From Salinarchaeum sp. Harcht-Bsk1 (lineage in GTDB: Archaea; Halobacteriota; Halobacteria; Halobacteriales; Salinarchaeaceae): a stretch of 64,000 nucleotides of DNA. The notes under the pieces are model-generated. The model did not search any database, was not told the origin of the DNA, and saw only the letters and a list, made by a program, of their open reading frames with translations. Where the stretch lies: assembly GCF_000403645.1 (NCBI RefSeq), contig NC_021313.1, forward strand, positions 930,001 to 994,000. Reading direction: 5' to 3'. A program made the translations under genes and the position numbers. Of this stretch, positions 21,579 through 29,894 are shown in pieces; within the stretch, counting starts at the first letter, position 1, and each line of letters opens with the position of its first letter.

Positions 21579-21944
21579 ATGCATCCACGACACCGAGATC
21601 GACGCGTGTCAGCGACGAGCGATGGACCGGGCGAGTCTGCCGAGGGTGATCGCGACGCAGCCGACGGTCCGGCGGAGTCGGCCGACGACGGGAGCGGCGA
21701 GCCGACCCGCACGACGACGCACCGCCCCGGCGACGAGGTGACCCACCCCGACGCCGACGGCCGAACCTGGAGCTGGCGCGGGGACGTCCTGCTCGTCGGC
21801 ATCTTCCTGTCGCTGTTCGTCGTCCCGATCGTGATCTACCTGCAGCCGCCGGCGCTGGAGTGGCGCGTCCGGTTGCTCATTCTGCCGATGATTCCGGGGC
21901 TGGTGCTGGCCGCCGCGGCGGTCTGGGCGACGACGCGACCGTGA
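21579..21944 (+). CDS. Haloarchaeal membrane protein with acidic N-terminal tail
   Basis: From the ATG this is 121 residues; a GTG at 21606 (MSATSDGPG when read as a start) would give 112. The first 60 residues are Asp/Glu/Gly rich and probably disordered. Two hydrophobic segments follow (LLVGIFLSLFVVPIVIYL and LLILPMIPGLVLAAAAVW) separated by a short QPPALEWRVR loop. This matches a common haloarchaeal small-membrane-protein layout with unknown function. Confidence 0.7.
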   Translation: MHPRHRDRRVSATSDGPGESAEGDRDAADGPAESADDGSGEPTRTTTHRPGDEVTHPDADGRTWSWRGDVLLVGIFLSLFVVPIVIYLQPPALEWRVRLLILPMIPGLVLAAAAVWATTRP

Positions 21945-22033
21945 GGGACGGGCGCTATTCGTGCGAAGTCGGGCAGGGGTACGTTCTGGGGGATCGGGTA
22001 GCGGTACGTCCTGGAAAAATCCTCAACAGGAAC

Positions 22034-22396
22034 TTATCTGATCGCGCGCGGCGCGGCCTCGAAGTCCGTCTCGAGGCGTTCGACGATGCGCCAGGCGAGG
22101 TCGGCGTCGTCCTCGGGCACGTCGGTGCGATCCGCGTACTCGACGAGCGCCTGGCGGATCCGCCAGGCTTCGAAGGTCGTCACGCGGTCGCCGAGCTCGA
22201 CGCCGGTGCCCGGGGAGGGGCCGGCGTCGCCGCCTGTCTCGAGTTTCCCAGCGATCGATACCGCCCACCAGGGCGGTGCGTCGTTGGCCTCGTAGGCCCG
22301 GTCGACGTGCTCGACCATGACGTGGTGGAGCACCCACTGCTCGGCTCGGCTGAGGTCCAGTCCGTCGGGCGCTGGGGGAGTGGCGGTCGTGCTCAT
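22034..22396 (-). CDS. Conserved haloarchaeal hypothetical protein
   Basis: This 120-residue soluble protein is helical and acidic, with LSRAEQWVLHHVMVEHVDRAYE, then WWAVSIAGKLETGG, then TTFEAWRIRQALVEYADR. I recall similar short proteins across haloarchaea but no known function. No catalytic or metal motif is evident. The ATG at 22396 (MSTTATPPAP) is well placed. Confidence 0.75.
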   Translation of the reverse strand: MSTTATPPAPDGLDLSRAEQWVLHHVMVEHVDRAYEANDAPPWWAVSIAGKLETGGDAGPSPGTGVELGDRVTTFEAWRIRQALVEYADRTDVPEDDADLAWRIVERLETDFEAAPRAIR

Positions 22397-22828
22397 CTGT
22401 GCACCGAGGGAGGTCGTCCCTCACCCCAAATACGAGGGAGGAGGTAAAAATCCTTGTGGCTCGTTAACATGGAACAAAATCGGGTCGAAGTTGGGACGGC
22501 ACTCGGGCGGAATCTCGTCATTCGGCAGACTGGCCCCGTTGGAACTGCAATGATGGTAGCGCCTCGTCCGCCGATTTGCATATTCGTCCAACGGTACTCG
22601 CTGAGGAGCGCTTCCGGGCGCACATCCCGAAAGCGGGACCGCAGGCGGAGCAACATATTCTCGTGCCGACCGAGCCAGCAACGGAATCGACGGAAGCGTT
22701 GGCAGCGGCCGGAGTATCAATCGGAGAGCGGAAACGTTCTAACTATTTGAGTAAATACGCAGTGCAATCCGATTATCCAAAGAGGATGTCCAAAATAATT
22801 ATAATGGGTCGATTTAATCTCGTTGCCA
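22397..22828. other. 432-base gap with possible degraded coding sequence
   Basis: No intact gene is supported here. On the plus strand two short open stretches in different frames (about 22468-22560 and 22576-22770) could be read as one protein-like string broken by a frameshift, which would fit the decay seen just downstream. The last 80 bases are AT-rich (aaaataattataatggg, about 22793-22808) and probably hold the promoter of the next gene. Confidence 0.35.
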
Positions 22829-24820
22829 ATGGCCAGTGCCGACCGTATCTGTGCAGTCTTGTTCACCGTTCTCCTCGTCCTCTCGATGGTGACACCGGCT
22901 GCACTCGCAGCCGAACCAGCTACGCAGGACGTCGGACGGGTCGACAGTTCGCCACCCGGCGAGCAGTCGAACAGTGAGCCCACGTCTTACGACGAAAACG
23001 CGAGTTCTCTGGAACTTCGCTTCGAAGCCTACCAGCTTCTGGAGAACGCGTCGATACGCGGCGGACCGGGAGCGAACGAACGGCTCCAGGAGCGAATCAA
23101 CGACACGTTCCAGTACTACGTCGGGCCGAACCGGGCGAGTGACGTTCGGCTGTTCGACTGGGACACGCAGGTCATCGCGCGCACGAAGCAGACCGCCCCC
23201 GAGGTCTCTAATCGTCTGCTCGCATCCCAGGCTCGACTCGCCGAGACGACGATGGCCGACGCGAACCGGACCGTCAACGCACTCGAAGCACGGAATGCGG
23301 ATTTCAACATCCAACGCGCTCGACAACAGTTGGACGCGGCCCAGCGCCAGTACGAGGTCGGACAAGAGCGACGTGAGCGCGGGCAGTCGAACGCAGCAAT
23401 CGCCGGGTATCGCCAGGCCTTCACGCGATCGAACCGCCTCATGGATCGGCTCCAGCGACGCACCGATCCCGAGATCGAACTCCAGCGCCGTGCCGATCCA
23501 ATCCGGAACGGGAGCGGGAACTACACGATCCGGGGAAGCGTCTTCGCCGTTCGATCCGGACAACTCGAGAATCTCACTGTCACCGTAAACGGAGACGCTC
23601 GAGAAATCCCGCTCCGGAGTGCCAGGGCACCTGCCTCTCGGGTTCCGTTCGCGACGACGCTGGAACTGGAGCGCCAGACGGCGACGGTCGAAATCGAAGC
23701 CGAGACGCGAAGCGAGCGTGGACAGCGGATCGTCGGGTCCGACTCCGTGACGCTCCTGCTCGACGGGGACGGACTCTCCGACGCCGTCGAAGCGAACGTA
23801 ACGGAGACCGATCCGCTCGATGCGGACTCGGATTCCGCAGTGACCGACCGGAACGAGTCCGACAATGGCGTCGTCGACGGCGTCGAGGACCTCGACGCGG
23901 ACTACCTCGCCACCGTCGTCGAACTCGAGGCTGGCCTCGACCCGCTCGTGAACGACACGGACGCGGACGGCCTCCTCGACGGCGACGAACTGCGACTGCT
24001 CCCGACCGATCCGCTGGACGAAGACACGGACAACGACACCGTGCTCGACGGCGACGAGGACCCCGACGGCGATGGGTTGACCAACGCGGAAGAGCTCGAA
24101 GCCGGGAGCCACTACAACTCGAGTGACGGTGATCGGGACGGACTCTCCGATCCGGAGGAACTCGAGTTGGGCACTGATCCGCTGCTGGCAGACACCGACG
24201 ACGACGGCCTCGCGGACGCCTCGGAGCTCGACGTCGGGACGGATCCCCTCGATACCGACATGGACGACGACGGAATTCTCGACGGCAACGAGACGTTCAC
24301 CACGAGCGTCGCGAACGAATCGGTGAATGTGTCGGTCACCTTCACCGGTCCAGGGGACGTCGCGGGTGACGCCTCAGTCACGAACGAGACCAGGGTCGGC
24401 CTGCGGAACGACCTCGTGGACCCGGCGCGAGCCACCGAGTTGATCCGCCTCGACGCGGAGCGGTCCTACGACACCGCCACCGTCGAATTCACCTACGACG
24501 AATCTGCCGTCCCCACGAACGAAACCGATCTCGCCGTCTACCGGCTGAACTACAGCGCGCAATTCTACGAGCCGGTCGCTTCGACCGTCGACGCCGAAAA
24601 CGACACCATCAGCGGACGGACCAACCAGACAGGCGTCTACACCGTCCTCTCGCCGAGCGTCCTCGACGAGCAGTTCAGCGTCGACCCGAACGAGAGTTCC
24701 GCCTACAACGTAGAATCATTCGAAGAGCCCGCAGACTGCGAAGGCGAGTGTGGCGTCGATGGCGGCAATCTCGTCGTGGGACCGGTCGGGGAGTCGTCGG
24801 CGCTCAGGGCACCTCACTGA
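22829..24820 (+). CDS. Secreted thrombospondin-type-3 protein, N-terminal segment of a frameshifted gene
   Basis: This 663-residue reading frame starts with a Sec signal peptide (VLFTVLLVLSMVTPAALA before AE). A helical, partly coiled-coil part follows (residues 60-210). From about residue 310 on there are many Ca-binding thrombospondin-type-3 repeats (for example DTDADGLLDGDELRLLPTDP, LELGTDPLLADTDDDGLAD). Many NxS/T sequons suggest glycosylation. The frame ends at 24820 but similar sequence continues at once in another frame, so the true gene very likely extends to 27538. The ATG at 22829 is preferred to a TTG two codons earlier. Confidence 0.8.
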   Translation: MASADRICAVLFTVLLVLSMVTPAALAAEPATQDVGRVDSSPPGEQSNSEPTSYDENASSLELRFEAYQLLENASIRGGPGANERLQERINDTFQYYVGPNRASDVRLFDWDTQVIARTKQTAPEVSNRLLASQARLAETTMADANRTVNALEARNADFNIQRARQQLDAAQRQYEVGQERRERGQSNAAIAGYRQAFTRSNRLMDRLQRRTDPEIELQRRADPIRNGSGNYTIRGSVFAVRSGQLENLTVTVNGDAREIPLRSARAPASRVPFATTLELERQTATVEIEAETRSERGQRIVGSDSVTLLLDGDGLSDAVEANVTETDPLDADSDSAVTDRNESDNGVVDGVEDLDADYLATVVELEAGLDPLVNDTDADGLLDGDELRLLPTDPLDEDTDNDTVLDGDEDPDGDGLTNAEELEAGSHYNSSDGDRDGLSDPEELELGTDPLLADTDDDGLADASELDVGTDPLDTDMDDDGILDGNETFTTSVANESVNVSVTFTGPGDVAGDASVTNETRVGLRNDLVDPARATELIRLDAERSYDTATVEFTYDESAVPTNETDLAVYRLNYSAQFYEPVASTVDAENDTISGRTNQTGVYTVLSPSVLDEQFSVDPNESSAYNVESFEEPADCEGECGVDGGNLVVGPVGESSALRAPH

Positions 24821-26739
24821 GTTCGTCCTCAGTGGACACCGATCGCGAACTCGTTGCGTTGAGTGGATTCCAAGATACAGTCCGTACCGTCACGACTCCG
24901 GCGGACGCCACCCATATGACGATATCGGCGACGGTCAGTGGAAGCGCCGGCCCGCGTTCGAGCGCCTCCTTCCTGGCTGGGGGCATTTCCATCTACGACA
25001 TCAACAGCGGCAGCGTCGACGACAAGCGTATTGTAGAAACCATCTCGGTCGACGGTGGGGAGAGGGTCCAGCTCCTCGTGTCTGGCCGCAGGCCTGCTTC
25101 CTTGAGCGTTCGCTCCCTCTCGATCGACTACACCCGAGAAGACAACGGTGGCGGCGGTGGGACCCCGATCGACCTGTGCCAGACCGTCCCGGGCGATCAG
25201 GAGCGGGAGTGTCCCGACTCGGCCGTCTCGGTCTACTCGGTCCCGATCCCGCGCGACGTCGCTAACGTCACCATCACCGGGAGCGGGTCGGCGACCGTCG
25301 TCGGCGACAACTCCAAGGTCGCCGTCGAGGTCGCTGGCGTCAGGGACGTCGTACTCGCGTCGGCGACGAGCAACGGCACCCTCTCCTTTTCGGAGACCTA
25401 CGAGGACCTCTCGCCGTCGGCCAGTAGCGACGAGCTCACGCTCAGCATCGAAACCACCGGCCTGGCTGGCGCGCGTCTCGATGGCGTCACCATCTGGAAG
25501 GACACCGACGGCGACGGCTTCACCGACCAGCGCGAACGGATCGGGTTCGAGACCGCGTTCTACGGGCGGATCTCGACCGATCCGCTCGACCCCGACACCG
25601 ATGGCGACGGTCTGGACGATGAAGAGGAGATCGGCGAGTTCGTATCGGAGGAGCAGGCGGACTTCGTCAACGGCGAGCTACACAGCGTGGAACAGGAGTT
25701 CTACCGGCTCAACAGCCATCCAGACCAGATCGACACCGACGGCGACCGGCTAAACGACTCCGTCGAGGCGGGCAACTGGACCGTCGCGGTGGTGAACCGT
25801 AACAACGCGATGTACCGCTGGAATAGCACGGAGCAACTCCACCCCGGCGAGTCCAGGGAGACAGTGAACTTCACGTCGAGTCCGCTGTTTTCGGACACCG
25901 ATCTGGACGGCCTGACGGATTACGAAGAGAAGGTCCGGTATCACACCGACCCCGAATCGCGGGTTACCTACGAGATCACCAGGGAGCACCAAGAACACGT
26001 CATCAATTCTGTCGTCGACGTCGAAGACGAATACGAGAGCACTACATTCCCACAGGCGCACCAGCACTACGTCAACAGCCTACAACGGACGAATTTCGTC
26101 GACGACGAAGACTGGAACCCAGACTCCGTTAGCGAACTCGAGACTTGGGAACTCGACGACGGCACCGACGACTTCGACTTCGTGACGGCAGACGGGTACC
26201 AAGAACGGGAGCCAGGCTTCGGACAGTTCTCGTTCACCGCTCTCGACGGGTCGGAGCGGGCTGACGTGTGGCTACCGAACGAAGCGGAGCTGAATCGAGG
26301 CCTGGACATGTGGGACCCCGATTCCGACGACGACGGGCTCACTGACGGGCAGGAAGTGCACGGGATTCCCGAGTACGGACGTGCCGAGTATACCTTGCCT
26401 GGGACAGCTAGAACAGTTACCACGACGTTCGCCCGGTACACACTCGATGAATCCGGAACCGATCCAACCGATGCAGACACCGACAGTGACGGCTGGTGGG
26501 ATGGTTGGATTGGCGTGTACGGAGCCGGAAGGTCTGATACCGTCATCCTCTATCGAGAGAACCTCCAATCTGGCGACGGTATTTCAGGACATGAAATCGT
26601 TGAAAACCAGGTGGGACTGCACGAAGTGACGGAAGCTCCTTCCACGAGAGGTGCGGACATTGATAATGACGGGACGAACGAGGTTTCGAACACATCTCGG
26701 CGAACTCCACTGGGGAACCGATCCTACTTCGGACAGTAG
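24748..26739 (+). CDS. Middle segment of the frameshifted thrombospondin-type-3 gene
   Basis: This 663-residue frame overlaps the end of the previous one. It lacks a plausible start: the first 25 residues are out-of-frame-like, then protein-like sequence begins at TSLSSSSVDTDRELVAL. It contains beta-rich stretches and further Ca-binding repeats (DTDGDGFTDQRE, STDPLDPDTDGDGLDDEEE, DTDLDGLTDYEEK, GTDPTDADTDSDGWWDG). It ends with ADIDNDGTNE before losing frame. A one-base change near 24775-24820 would join it to the upstream segment, and another near 26690-26715 to the downstream one. Confidence 0.75.
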   Translation: MWRRWRQSRRGTGRGVVGAQGTSLSSSSVDTDRELVALSGFQDTVRTVTTPADATHMTISATVSGSAGPRSSASFLAGGISIYDINSGSVDDKRIVETISVDGGERVQLLVSGRRPASLSVRSLSIDYTREDNGGGGGTPIDLCQTVPGDQERECPDSAVSVYSVPIPRDVANVTITGSGSATVVGDNSKVAVEVAGVRDVVLASATSNGTLSFSETYEDLSPSASSDELTLSIETTGLAGARLDGVTIWKDTDGDGFTDQRERIGFETAFYGRISTDPLDPDTDGDGLDDEEEIGEFVSEEQADFVNGELHSVEQEFYRLNSHPDQIDTDGDRLNDSVEAGNWTVAVVNRNNAMYRWNSTEQLHPGESRETVNFTSSPLFSDTDLDGLTDYEEKVRYHTDPESRVTYEITREHQEHVINSVVDVEDEYESTTFPQAHQHYVNSLQRTNFVDDEDWNPDSVSELETWELDDGTDDFDFVTADGYQEREPGFGQFSFTALDGSERADVWLPNEAELNRGLDMWDPDSDDDGLTDGQEVHGIPEYGRAEYTLPGTARTVTTTFARYTLDESGTDPTDADTDSDGWWDGWIGVYGAGRSDTVILYRENLQSGDGISGHEIVENQVGLHEVTEAPSTRGADIDNDGTNEVSNTSRRTPLGNRSYFGQ

Positions 26740-27538
26740 AATACCTTCACCAAGTGCCACCTATGAAATTGACTATTACACCAACGCTGATCTACGACTG
26801 CATACCTCAAACTGGACAAGGGGCATCGAAGCAAATTACGCGTTGTATGGATATGATATTAATATTGTTAGGGACCAAACCCTCTCCGCGAATTTCGTTG
26901 ACAGCCATGTAACTGACTCAAATAATGGATTTGGTTTCCTGGAAATTCGAGGAATCGCAGATCTATCGGATTCGGGGAACAATGACGAGAATGTTCTAGT
27001 ATTAGATAGATCCGGTGGAAACATTCCGGGAGGAGGGGACCAAACCGGGATCAATCTCTGGAAGCTTCGACATATCGCACTGTTCACCGACGGTCTATCC
27101 AATGAGGCCAATAGCGTCGATAGAGCAACCATGCCAGAGTATCGATATTATGATAGTCCAATCGAAGTCGTTGGAGCGAAAACACTCATCCATGAGATCG
27201 GCCATGGCGTAAATATTGGACGGGCAGATGATGCAGCACTCCAAGATACAGTCGGTTGGGGAGTTGAATGGCCACCCATCAGCATCGATATCGATATGAT
27301 AAGACAAAACTGGGAAATATACACTAATACGGGTGACGACCCAAGCCAGGAGCGCCTTGTGTCCGGACCTGACGCAAGAATTTGGAGTATAATGGGTCCG
27401 GGCTGGGATACTCAAATGAGTCACACTTATAATGGCTCTCGATATTTCGCCTTCAGTATACAGGAACTGTTCACGGCGAATGACTATGATGAGGATCGGT
27501 CGTTGCTGCAATACTTGGAAGAGGACATAGACATCTGA
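26651..27538 (+). CDS. C-terminal zincin metalloprotease segment of the frameshifted gene
   Basis: From about residue 15 this frame continues the repeat (LGELHWGTDPTSDS), fitting the broken repeat DIDNDGTNEVSNT at the end of the middle segment. It then carries a metalloprotease domain with the zinc motif LIHEIGHGVNIG (about residue 182) and a possible Met-turn, IWSIMGPG. The exact metzincin third ligand is not at the standard place. Base composition is visibly poorer in GC than upstream. With all three segments joined, the product would be a secreted Ca-dependent protease of about 1570 residues. Confidence 0.75.
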   Translation: MRTLIMTGRTRFRTHLGELHWGTDPTSDSRIPSPSATYEIDYYTNADLRLHTSNWTRGIEANYALYGYDINIVRDQTLSANFVDSHVTDSNNGFGFLEIRGIADLSDSGNNDENVLVLDRSGGNIPGGGDQTGINLWKLRHIALFTDGLSNEANSVDRATMPEYRYYDSPIEVVGAKTLIHEIGHGVNIGRADDAALQDTVGWGVEWPPISIDIDMIRQNWEIYTNTGDDPSQERLVSGPDARIWSIMGPGWDTQMSHTYNGSRYFAFSIQELFTANDYDEDRSLLQYLEEDIDI

Positions 27539-27544
27539 TTCGTT

Positions 27545-27982
27545 ATGAGCCGAAGCAGAATCTCCTACATCGCGGTCTCACTCGTCATATTGACTCTCCT
27601 CGCTGGGTGCGGATACACCCCAACTGACGACACTGCCAGAGTGAGCTACGAAGGTCGCATGGAGCAGACTGGAAACGGTACTGTCCTCACTGGGTACTTG
27701 TATATCAATGGGGTAGAGGAGCAGGGCAACTATCAGAATGTGACAGTATCGGCATATGACCGGAACCGATCTGTCATTTACCAGGAGCGAATCGGTACCC
27801 TCAGTGCAAACGAACGATTGAACGTCTCTACAACGCTCCCTCGATCCACTCAGTACATTACGTTCACTTCACCAGACTTCTGGCACGAGGACATGACTGT
27901 CGCGTCGTATTGCTATCTTGAGTCAGAGGAACGATGGGGCTTCAATCGGGCCTCCTCGAATGAGGAGTTGTTGGACTGTTAA
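27545..27982 (+). CDS. Putative lipoprotein, unknown function
   Basis: This 145-residue protein begins with a lipoprotein signal (ISYIAVSLVILTLLAGC), with Cys22 as the lipid anchor. The rest looks like a small beta-rich domain (GYLYINGVEEQGNYQNVTVSAYD...) ending in a cysteine pair region (VASYCYLESEER...LLDC). It starts 6 bases after the metalloprotease frame ends, so they may be one transcript. The C-terminus is echoed in the remnant at 27998-28105. GC is low for the window. Confidence 0.75.
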   Translation: MSRSRISYIAVSLVILTLLAGCGYTPTDDTARVSYEGRMEQTGNGTVLTGYLYINGVEEQGNYQNVTVSAYDRNRSVIYQERIGTLSANERLNVSTTLPRSTQYITFTSPDFWHEDMTVASYCYLESEERWGFNRASSNEELLDC

Positions 27983-27997
27983 TTCAATCTGGCTAAT

Positions 27998-28105
27998 ATG
28001 ACGGCGTATCCGACCTTCGTCGAAACGTCCTACTGCTACTTCGACGAATCCGAGCGACTGGCGTCCAACCACGCGACGTCAGAAAACGGACTATTGGAAT
28101 GTTGA
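27998..28105 (+). pseudogene. Truncated paralog of the upstream lipoprotein (C-terminal remnant)
   Basis: The 35-codon frame encodes SYCYFDESERLASNHATSEN then GLLEC and stop. This aligns with the last 24 residues of the lipoprotein just upstream (SYCYLESEERWGFNRASSNE then ELLDC). Only the C-terminal part is present; there is no signal peptide or lipobox. It is best explained as the surviving end of a tandem duplicate. Confidence 0.7.
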
Positions 28106-28121
28106 TAACGGTGGAGGAATC

Positions 28122-28563
28122 ATGAAGCGGAGATGGGCATTGGCGTCGTCGTAATCATGGCAGCGATGAGTGGCTGCTCCATCGATCCAGGAAAGGTGCG
28201 ACCATTGAGTATGACGGGAATTCCACCGACGAGGACGAGTCATTCGCGATACACGGAGAAGTCGAGCTCTCAGGTCCTACCCCGCCTCAGGACAAATACC
28301 AAAACATCACGATATATCTATATTCAGAAGAATACGAATTGATCGATAGCCAGAACTTGGGAACCATCTACAATGACTCTACTCCCCTCCCAGTCTCCAT
28401 TTCTACAGATGAAATCCCGGAATACATCATAATCCACTCTGACGACCTCTGGGACGGGAAGACGTTGATAATGTACTACGTTCGGGATTCCATTGACGGA
28501 GTTGGCTACCGGCCCGAAAGAGCAACCGACCGTGATGAATTAGCGTTAGTGCCAAATACATGA
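28122..28563 (+). pseudogene. Frameshifted lipoprotein gene
   Basis: The ATG at 28122 opens a frame that stops after 10 codons (MKRRWALASS). A second frame from 28133 encodes a lipoprotein signal (GVVVIMAAMSGCSIDPG). Shortly after, near 28190-28200, sense continues in a third frame (TIEYDGNSTDEDESFAIHGE onward through IHSDDLWDGKTLIMYYVRDS) to the stop at 28561. Two frameshifts would restore a protein of about 145 residues, like its neighbour. No function is known. Confidence 0.65.
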
Positions 28564-28622
28564 GTACTGTGACCTGCTAGAATTGAAGAAATCCCTTATG
28601 TCAATATAGAATCAATAGATCG

Positions 28623-29133
28623 ATGAGAGTAATTCAACTCATTCTACTATTCGCCGTGGTCGGTTCGATGGTACTTCTCGGAGGGTGTATCGACACCGGA
28701 GATCAACGTGGAGAAGAATACGTTGACACATATGAAAGCCGTGTGGACATCTCGTTCGACATCCCCAACGACTCAGACCAGTATCCAATTGCAGGAGAGG
28801 TGAGAATGCGAATAGTGGACTCCAGATACCAAGATCTCGATGGCCTCACGATCTGTGCATACGGGGAGCAGGGAGCCGTTCTGCGTCGAGTGAGCTCGGG
28901 TCGATGAATGCAACGCACGCGGCATTTCCGTTCACTCTGTCACTGAATCGACAACCACGATACGTCTTCGTCGCCCATCCAGATTTACCGAGATTCCAGA
29001 GCTGAATCAAGACGTCATAGAGATAACAGATGATCGGGTGCGGGTTGGTCCAAGATATCCGACTGAATACATCGACGAGTTCGACTACTCCCGGTCGAAA
29101 AGTGAGGGGAACTGCGGAGCAGTATCTGGATGA
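28623..29133 (+). pseudogene. Frameshifted lipoprotein gene
   Basis: The first frame (28623-28907) encodes a lipoprotein signal (LILLFAVVGSMVLLGGC) and a beta-rich start, but ends early. The expected continuation appears in the next frame (MNATHAAFPFTLSLNRQPRY then VFVAHPD, from 28904), and then in a third frame (EIPELNQDVIEITDDRVRVG through GNCGAVSG, stop 29131-29133). Both shifts go in the same direction. Joined, the product would be about 170 residues. Signal and fold type match the two lipoproteins upstream. Confidence 0.65.
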
Positions 29134-29218
29134 TGAACCCCTGTTTAGACCCTGAGGGCTGTTTGCTTAGACTTCTACAGAGACGAGGATAGTCACCGAA
29201 AGCGGTCCCGGACTCCCC

Positions 29219-29842
29219 TCAGTCCACGTCCCGCCGCATCGCGATCTCGAACCACGGACACAGTCGTAGCTGCCGGTACCAGCGCGGGTTCTCGTGCAGT
29301 CGATCGTACGGCGCCCAGAGCACGCCAGCGACCTCCCCCTCGTCGGGATCGAGGTCGGTGTCGGTCAGCGTCGCCTGCAGGACGGCACAGACCTCGTGCT
29401 CGACGCCCTGGTCCTCGAAGTAGCGCTTGTACTCGAAGCGGTCCGTGACGCGGAGGTCGGTGTACTGGTCGGGCGTGATGCCGAGTTCCTCTTCGAGGCG
29501 CTCCTCGGTGGCCTCTTCCTGGGTCTGGCCCTCGACCGGATGGGAGGCGACGGTGCCGTCCCAGTGGGTGTCCCAGAGGCGCTTGTCGGGGCTGCGCTGG
29601 GCGAGGAGGATTCGGCCGTCCTCGTCGAACAGCAGGCAGGTGAAGGCGCGGTGGCGGATGCCCTCGCCCGTGTGGGCGTCGAGTCGGTTGACGGTCCCCT
29701 CCGTCTCGTCCTGCTCGTCGACGGCGATGACGTCCTGGCCCGCGTTGGGGTGTTCGAGTGGCTCCTCGGCGTCGGCGCCCTCCTCGCTGCCCCCGACGTC
29801 GGCCGCTTCGGCAGATCCGGCGTCGTTCTCCGTGGTACCCAT
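29219..29842 (-). CDS. idi: Isopentenyl-diphosphate delta-isomerase, type I (Nudix)
   Basis: This enzyme interconverts isopentenyl and dimethylallyl diphosphate, the first branch step to archaeal lipids and carotenoids. It has 207 residues from the ATG at 29842, with an extra acidic N-terminal tail of about 45 residues. Active-site motifs are present: the Cys in HRAFTCLLFDEDGR, WDTHWDGTVASHP, and the Nudix-like EEATEERLEEELG, then HEVCAVL. A GTG four codons upstream is an alternative start. It is the first of a minus-strand pair with the lipid kinase. Confidence 0.92.
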   Translation of the reverse strand: MGTTENDAGSAEAADVGGSEEGADAEEPLEHPNAGQDVIAVDEQDETEGTVNRLDAHTGEGIRHRAFTCLLFDEDGRILLAQRSPDKRLWDTHWDGTVASHPVEGQTQEEATEERLEEELGITPDQYTDLRVTDRFEYKRYFEDQGVEHEVCAVLQATLTDTDLDPDEGEVAGVLWAPYDRLHENPRWYRQLRLCPWFEIAMRRDVD

Positions 29843-29894
29843 GTGGCGATGCACGGCAACGCCATTGATAGCGGCTTCGACTCGAACCGTCCGG

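What the first reader, a model, noticed from the sequence alone, without database searches (positions are those of the whole stretch)
22829..27538. A giant secreted TSP3-metalloprotease gene broken by two compensating frameshifts
Three reading frames abut: signal peptide plus Ca-binding repeats, then more repeats, then repeats leading into a HEIGH zincin domain. The broken repeat DIDNDGTNEVSNT in one frame continues as LGELHWGTDPTSDS in the next, which shows they were one protein of about 1570 residues. The frame order is 2-1-2, so the second shift restores the first. This may be recent gene death, an assembly error, or programmed frameshifting. A Ca-armed secreted protease linked to lipoproteins could be a cell-surface competition or maturation system.
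Basis: partly seen in the sequence, partly recalled or inferred. Interest (0 to 1): 0.7.

Follow-up and report, generated by a model that had tools for sequence, protein, structure and literature searches.

The report
Broken archaeal polymorphic toxin, metalloprotease warhead
This stretch is the decayed remains of a large secreted weapon of a salt-loving archaeon: a swappable protease tip on a conserved carrier protein, followed by small membrane-anchored proteins that probably protect the owner; intact relatives in other haloarchaea suggest a little-studied way in which archaea fight each other.

Summary
The three abutting frames (22829-24817, 24820-26694, 26696-27538) are one ~1,570-residue protein: relatives in about nine other haloarchaeal genomes are single intact ORFs, colinear with all three pieces. 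The breaks are not a compensating pair; each ends translation on its own. They belong to a decaying 6.7-kb island (22471-29216), absent at the same site in a same-genus genome. Two of its three lipoprotein genes are frameshifted too. No such break turned up elsewhere in the window.

The family behaves as a polymorphic toxin system. The Sec-secreted TSP3 backbone is near-identical between paralogues, then drops to 24-50% identity in the C-terminal zincin. Orphan zincin cassettes lie in tandem downstream. The same backbone carries unrelated C-termini elsewhere. At 54 of 56 complete zincin C-termini the next gene is a ~140-190-residue lipoprotein or membrane-anchored protein of one family; the two divergences correlate (Mantel r = 0.77). 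Best reading: a metzincin-like extracellular protease toxin with a surface-anchored immunity protein. In the window the toxin is dead and one immunity gene remains intact. Toxicity, immunity and target are inferred, not shown. A haloarchaeal polymorphic toxin is a known kind; this warhead/immunity pair looks like a new variant, though the key 2019 survey could not be read.

The parts
22471..29216 (.). Island: broken toxin gene plus its immunity-like genes, absent from the same site in a same-genus genome (G026)
   Evidence: Flanks 21694-22470 and 29217-29884 match G026 at 78-83% and lie ~173 bp apart there
22829..24820 (+). Backbone part 1: Sec signal peptide, N-terminal region, TSP3 repeats (frame 2), ends at premature stop
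   Evidence: 33-39% identical to the N-terminal ~610-710 residues of intact relatives
24770..24820 (+). First frame break (frame 2 to frame 1), region only
   Evidence: Frame switch in codon-usage profile; intact relatives are one ORF
24820..26694 (+). Backbone part 2: middle domain and second TSP3 set (frame 1)
   Evidence: 36-40% identical over ~400 residues to intact relatives
26470..26785 (+). Conserved pretoxin segment (DGWWDGWIGVYG ... LGELHWGTDP) just before the variable domain, interrupted by the second frame break
   Evidence: Alignments of full-length and orphan cassettes
26670..26700 (+). Second frame break (frame 1 to frame 2), region only
   Evidence: tblastn of relatives switches frame here; codon profile
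26696..27538 (+). C-terminal metzincin-like zincin warhead, HEIGH at 27191-27205, Met-turn-like WSIM, FSIQEL motif; GC 0.47
27545..27982 (+). Intact lipoprotein (lipobox LAGC), predicted immunity protein 1, all-beta sandwich
   Evidence: HMM E 1.2e-38; AlphaFold2 pLDDT 90
27983..28108 (+). Leftover C-terminal fragment resembling the end of immunity protein 1
   Evidence: Frame-2 translation, read by eye
28133..28563 (+). Second lipoprotein gene, frameshifted (signal and lipobox in frame 2, body in frame 1)
   Evidence: HMM hits 28136-28225 and 28186-28542 in different frames
28623..28990 (+). Third lipoprotein gene, frameshifted (frame 3 then frame 2; remainder perhaps in frame 1)
   Evidence: HMM hits 28644-28901 and 28871-28990 in different frames

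Best explanation
The locus is a decayed haloarchaeal polymorphic toxin locus. SHOWN by sequence comparison: intact relatives are single, signal-peptide-bearing proteins of ~1,480-1,630 residues with a conserved TSP3 (Ca-binding type) backbone, a highly conserved pretoxin segment and a highly variable C-terminal zincin. Nearly every zincin C-terminus is followed directly by a gene of one small lipoprotein/membrane-anchored family. Displaced zincin-lipoprotein cassettes lie in tandem behind full-length genes, and the backbone carries other C-termini in other genomes. In the window the toxin is broken twice and two of three lipoprotein genes are broken; the first lipoprotein gene is intact. INFERRED: the protein leaves the cell by the Sec route, Ca2+ rigidifies the TSP3 stalk, and the C-terminal metzincin-like protease attacks extracellular or cell-surface proteins (such as S-layer or membrane proteins) of neighbouring haloarchaea. 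The membrane-anchored, outward-facing beta-sandwich protein binds and blocks the cognate protease, protecting the producer. Cassette swapping by recombination at the pretoxin segment changes specificity. The window copy arrived in a horizontally acquired island and is now dead; the remaining intact lipoprotein could still give protection.
For: Intact relatives are one ORF colinear with all three pieces. Variability profile: two paralogues in one genome (L057/L058) are 95-100% identical over window-equivalent residues 676-1200, then 67, 44, 24, 38 and 50% in successive 75-residue blocks. Orphan cassettes in L058-L061, L066, L067, L070, L073. 54 of 56 complete zincin C-termini are followed by the lipoprotein family, mostly -31 to +14 bp away; in loci fetched independently of those used to build the models (L077, L078, L081, L082, L084, L086, L087, L089) it is 14 of 14. 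Mantel r = 0.77 between zincin and partner divergence, permutation maximum 0.22, n = 31. Partners keep an outward-facing membrane anchor although its type varies (Sec lipobox, Tat-like SRR lipobox, or a TM helix). The same backbone (38-45% identical to P0001) bears unrelated C-termini in L097, L098, L100, L102, L103, L104. L074 shows a non-zincin C-terminus with a different partner gene and a displaced zincin remnant + lipoprotein 1.8 kb downstream. GC falls from 0.64 (backbone) to 0.47 (zincin). Empty site in G026. Metzincins head both the profile search and the fold search. No other broken gene was seen in the window.
Against: No experiment shows toxicity, protease activity or immunity. Genetic linkage alone would produce much of the Mantel correlation. 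The zincin model is weak (mean pLDDT 57, poor beyond residue 175) and its fold and profile matches are below usual significance (best Foldseek E 0.0095, best profile E 0.0087). A conserved subgroup has EExxH instead of HExxH, so not every member need be an active protease. No release protease, secretion apparatus or conserved upstream partner was found. One full-length locus (L068 = L080) has no lipoprotein behind it.
Confidence: 0.74

Rival explanations
1. The frame breaks are sequencing or assembly errors and the gene is intact and functional in the organism.
For: Short GGGG runs lie near both sites (24788, 26712); the pieces still look protein-like in every frame, and no stop occurs inside any piece.
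Against: At least four breaks fall in the ~6 kb of island genes, in three different genes, and none was seen in ~44 kb of predicted coding sequence elsewhere in the window or in flanking orthologues compared with G026. Relatives of the cassettes are often broken as well (L071, L072, L075; stops at G198, G267, G281).
Confidence: 0.15
2. The gene is expressed through programmed frameshifting, or as three cooperating polypeptides.
For: Each piece is a long open frame; GTG codons are available near the starts of ORF2 (24748) and ORF3 (26651).
Against: Every complete relative is a single ORF; no X XXY YYZ heptamer at the first site; pieces 2 and 3 have no signal peptide; the lipoprotein genes are broken too.
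Confidence: 0.03
3. An ordinary secreted or surface metalloprotease for nutrition or S-layer turnover, with a lipoprotein inhibitor or chaperone; not a weapon.
For: Metzincin-like domain and secreted TSP3 proteins are compatible with housekeeping proteolysis; a lipoprotein inhibitor could protect the own surface.
Against: Hypervariable C-terminus on a near-identical backbone, tandem displaced cassettes, sporadic distribution (14 of 295 order genomes, none in the same-genus genome), and exchange for unrelated C-termini are not features of a housekeeping enzyme.
Confidence: 0.15
4. A polymorphic self/non-self recognition or adhesion system rather than a toxin, with the zincin domain as a recognition module.
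For: EExxH members suggest that catalysis is dispensable in one subgroup; some backbones contain a vWA domain.
Against: Most members keep HExxH, the DD downstream of it and the WS[IV]M motif.
Confidence: 0.1

Closest known systems
Archaeal polymorphic toxin systems (Makarova et al. 2019, as cited in PMC8416519)
   Same: Large secreted multidomain halobacterial proteins with variable C-terminal toxin modules, downstream cassettes and dedicated adjacent immunity genes
   Different: PMC8416519 says DNases and RNases are the commonest archaeal toxin moieties; here the warhead is a metzincin-like protease and the partner is extracytoplasmic and lipid- or TM-anchored. The 2019 paper is not in the held library, so whether it lists this variant could not be checked
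Bacterial polymorphic toxins with metallopeptidase warheads (Tox-MPTase1-5, Zhang et al. 2012, PMC3482391)
   Same: C-terminal HExxH zincin at the tip of a long modular secreted protein
   Different: Those are mostly on RHS stalks in bacteria and are listed without a known immunity family; no Pfam family matches the zincin here
Imm65 lipoprotein immunity with Tox-JAB-1 (PMC3482391)
   Same: Lipobox-anchored immunity protein encoded beside its toxin
   Different: Described there as the only lipoprotein immunity protein in that collection; a different toxin class; homology not tested
MafB / CdiA / Rhs toxins with orphan cassettes
   Same: Conserved N-terminus, variable C-terminus, tandem displaced C-terminal cassettes with immunity genes (comparison from general knowledge)
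   Different: No two-partner secretion, RHS shell or dedicated apparatus seen; Sec signal peptide and TSP3 backbone
Metzincins (archaemetzincin, fragilysin, serralysin, MMPs)
   Same: HExxH, a downstream Asp and a W-S-[IV]-M motif resembling the Met-turn; best fold and profile matches
   Different: Two-residue longer spacing (HExxHxxxxGxxDD against HExxHxxGxxH/D); similarity below usual significance

Membership tests
Polymorphic toxin system | Conserved N-terminal/delivery region with highly variable C-terminal domain | tested here: met
Polymorphic toxin system | Different toxin families on the same backbone in different genomes | tested here: met
   Backbone 38-45% identical to P0001 with unrelated C-termini in L097-L104 and in L074; the names of those C-termini (EndoU-like, nuclease-like) are by eye, with no Pfam support
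Polymorphic toxin system | Orphan toxin cassettes downstream | tested here: met
   (in relatives; in the window only leftover immunity genes remain)
Polymorphic toxin system | Dedicated immunity gene immediately downstream of each toxin | tested here: met
   Position and co-divergence met; the protective function itself was not testable
Polymorphic toxin system | Toxin inhibits neighbouring cells and immunity protein neutralises it | not testable with these tools
   Needs bench work
Polymorphic toxin system | Secretion signal or delivery system | tested here: met
   N-terminal signal peptide in window and relatives; no dedicated apparatus found
Metzincin peptidase clan | HExxHxxGxxH/D zinc motif | tested here: inconclusive
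   HExxH present, but followed by xxxxGxxDD; EExxH in a subgroup
Metzincin peptidase clan | Metzincin fold with Met-turn | tested here: inconclusive
   Metzincins rank first in fold search, but E 0.0095 and model pLDDT 57 with the C-terminal part unreliable
Lipoprotein immunity family | Lipobox plus adjacency to one toxin class | tested here: met
   a few members use a TM anchor instead
Programmed-frameshift gene | Frame change conserved among relatives, with a slippery site | tested here: not met

The most novel reading that the evidence does not exclude
Haloarchaea carry a scattered but recurrent, so far undescribed class of polymorphic toxins whose warhead is an extracellular metzincin-like protease that cuts neighbours' surface proteins, neutralised by cognate lipid-anchored beta-sandwich inhibitors on the outer face of the producer's membrane: a protease-versus-inhibitor arms race fought on the archaeal cell surface.
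Probability: 0.45. Interest if true: 0.68.

Novelty: new variant of a known kind. Interest (0 to 1): 0.52.

Why it matters
Archaeal polymorphic toxins have been predicted, but were described in 2021 as not experimentally characterised (PMC8416519). Warhead and immunity genes that both act outside the membrane could be tested with added purified protein in tractable haloarchaea, with no delivery step to solve. The arrays of cassettes and orphan immunity genes give dozens of natural toxin/immunity pairs for specificity tests. The window shows a late stage: a dead toxin with one intact immunity gene.

Tried and rejected
Pfam, NCBIfam and PADLOC gave no family for zincin or lipoprotein. Apparent toxin-lipoprotein fusions in L077 and L083 were artefacts of masked N runs. 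A viral-contig scan found no relatives. Programmed frameshifting rejected. The compensating-shift idea rejected from reading frames alone. A conserved upstream partner gene was looked for and not found. The fold match of the lipoprotein to the Bacillus intracellular proteinase inhibitor BsuPI (3isy, E 0.029, rank 3) is suggestive but not significant and is not used as evidence. Makarova et al. 2019 could not be read.

Full report
OBSERVATION. The three abutting frames are real. ORF1 begins at ATG 22829 with a plain Sec-type signal peptide and ends at a stop at 24818-24820. The second frame is open from 24370 to 26736 and the third ends at 27538 with HEIGH at 27191-27205. A codon-usage profile switches frame near 24770-24800 and 26670-26700. 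Searches with pieces 2 and 3 in 295 genomes of the same order, followed by alignment of all three pieces to the loci found, gave single ORFs of about 1,480-1,630 residues that match piece 1, piece 2 and piece 3 in order, so the pieces were one protein. The two breaks do not compensate each other: the protein-like content between them is in frame 1, so translation from the start ends at 24818 in any case.

DECAY, NOT ERROR OR RECODING. In a same-genus genome (G026) the sequences flanking 22471-29216 lie side by side (173 bp apart), so the toxin and its neighbours form an island gained here or lost there. The searches found no other copy of the toxin in the window's genome, nor any in G026. Downstream of the toxin, a profile of the lipoprotein family finds one intact gene (27545-27982) and two genes whose parts lie in different frames (28133-28563 and 28623-~28990), plus a leftover C-terminal fragment. 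A codon-usage scan of the window shows no other gene split between frames; the other same-strand frame changes it flags coincide with ordinary gene ends. The scan is a simple one and cannot exclude a locally bad stretch of assembly. No slippery heptamer lies at the first site and no relative needs a frame change.

WHAT IT IS. Two paralogues in one genome (L057, L058) are 95-100% identical over window-equivalent residues 676-1200, then 67, 44, 24, 38 and 50% over successive 75-residue blocks. The boundary is a very conserved pretoxin segment (D-G-Y-W-D-G-W-I-G-V-Y-G ... H-I-G-E-L-H-W). Behind full-length genes, or standing apart, lie shorter ORFs that begin in or near this segment and carry other zincins, often as tandem arrays with lipoprotein genes between them (L058, L059, L060, L061, L066, L067, L070, L073). 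The same N-terminal backbone, 38-45% identical, ends in unrelated domains in other haloarchaea (L097, L098, L100, L102, L103, L104). L074 has a non-zincin C-terminus with an alpha-helical-looking partner, and a zincin remnant with its lipoprotein further downstream. These are the defining genomic marks of a polymorphic toxin system. The fall of GC from 0.64 to 0.47 at the zincin fits cassette exchange.

PARTNER GENE. Of 56 complete zincin C-termini, 54 are followed by a gene of one family of ~140-190 residues; the two exceptions are one locus seen twice, and a few of the 54 are likewise duplicates between collections. The lipoprotein profile was built from downstream genes of L057-L076, so adjacency there is partly built in; in independently fetched loci it is 14 of 14. 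Zincin and partner divergences correlate (Mantel r = 0.77; 0.67 when only pairs under 60% zincin identity are used; permutation maximum about 0.21-0.22). This shows that they travel and diverge together, which linkage alone could cause, and does not show binding. The anchor varies (Sec lipobox, Tat-like lipobox, TM helix) but an outward-facing, membrane-held domain is retained. The window's partner is predicted as an all-beta sandwich with good confidence (pLDDT 90).

WARHEAD. No Pfam family matches the window's zincin. A profile of 14 relatives finds fragilysin, serralysins and matrix metalloproteases as best but sub-significant PDB matches, and the fold search ranks archaemetzincin first (E 0.0095) from a weak model (pLDDT 57). 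The motif HExxHxxxxGxxDD with WS[IV]M downstream is metzincin-like but not canonical. A conserved subgroup has EExxH.

MECHANISM. Inferred: Sec secretion, Ca-stiffened TSP3 stalk, proteolysis of extracellular or surface proteins of neighbours, and protection of the producer by the anchored lipoprotein. Shown: architecture, adjacency, co-divergence, modular exchange, and decay in the window.

KNOWN OR NEW. Archaeal polymorphic toxins are a known kind (PMC8416519 citing Makarova et al. 2019; PMC3482391). Zhang et al. list bacterial metallopeptidase toxin domains without a known immunity family, and name only one lipoprotein immunity family, for a JAB toxin. A metzincin-like warhead with a lipoprotein partner in haloarchaea therefore looks like a new variant, with the caveat that the 2019 survey could not be read. 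Zincin relatives were found only in haloarchaea in a 394-genome sample of the phylum (6 genomes), and by name in Halosimplex, Haloarcula, Halorhabdus and unnamed Halobacteriales, plus one contig labelled Salinivenus that may be misbinned.

Noticed in passing
L064, L065, L070:9983-10690, L077:14289-15122, L084: A conserved subgroup of the zincin cassettes has EExxH in place of HExxH yet keeps the rest of the motif and its lipoprotein partner; a changed metal site or a non-catalytic toxin.
   Followed up: partly
L074:3673-11035: Full-length backbone with a different C-terminus and an alpha-helical-looking partner gene, followed 1.8 kb later by a zincin remnant with its lipoprotein: apparent warhead replacement caught in one locus.
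   Followed up: partly
L097, L098, L100, L102, L103, L104: The same TSP3 backbone ends in other putative toxin domains (by eye EndoU-like in L097/L104 and nuclease-like in L100/L103), with no Pfam match.
   Followed up: partly
L058:4877-9454 and relatives in L057, L059, L103: A von Willebrand factor A domain sits in the middle of the backbone in one subgroup and is replaced by another domain in the window's protein.
   Followed up: no
L081: A contig filed under a Salinivenus (bacterial) metagenome bin carries a full-length toxin and a long cassette array; possibly a misbinned haloarchaeal contig or a transfer to bacteria.
   Followed up: no
L068:5582-9436 (= L080): Haloarcula argentinensis full-length zincin toxin with no lipoprotein gene behind it; the only such exception seen.
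   Followed up: no
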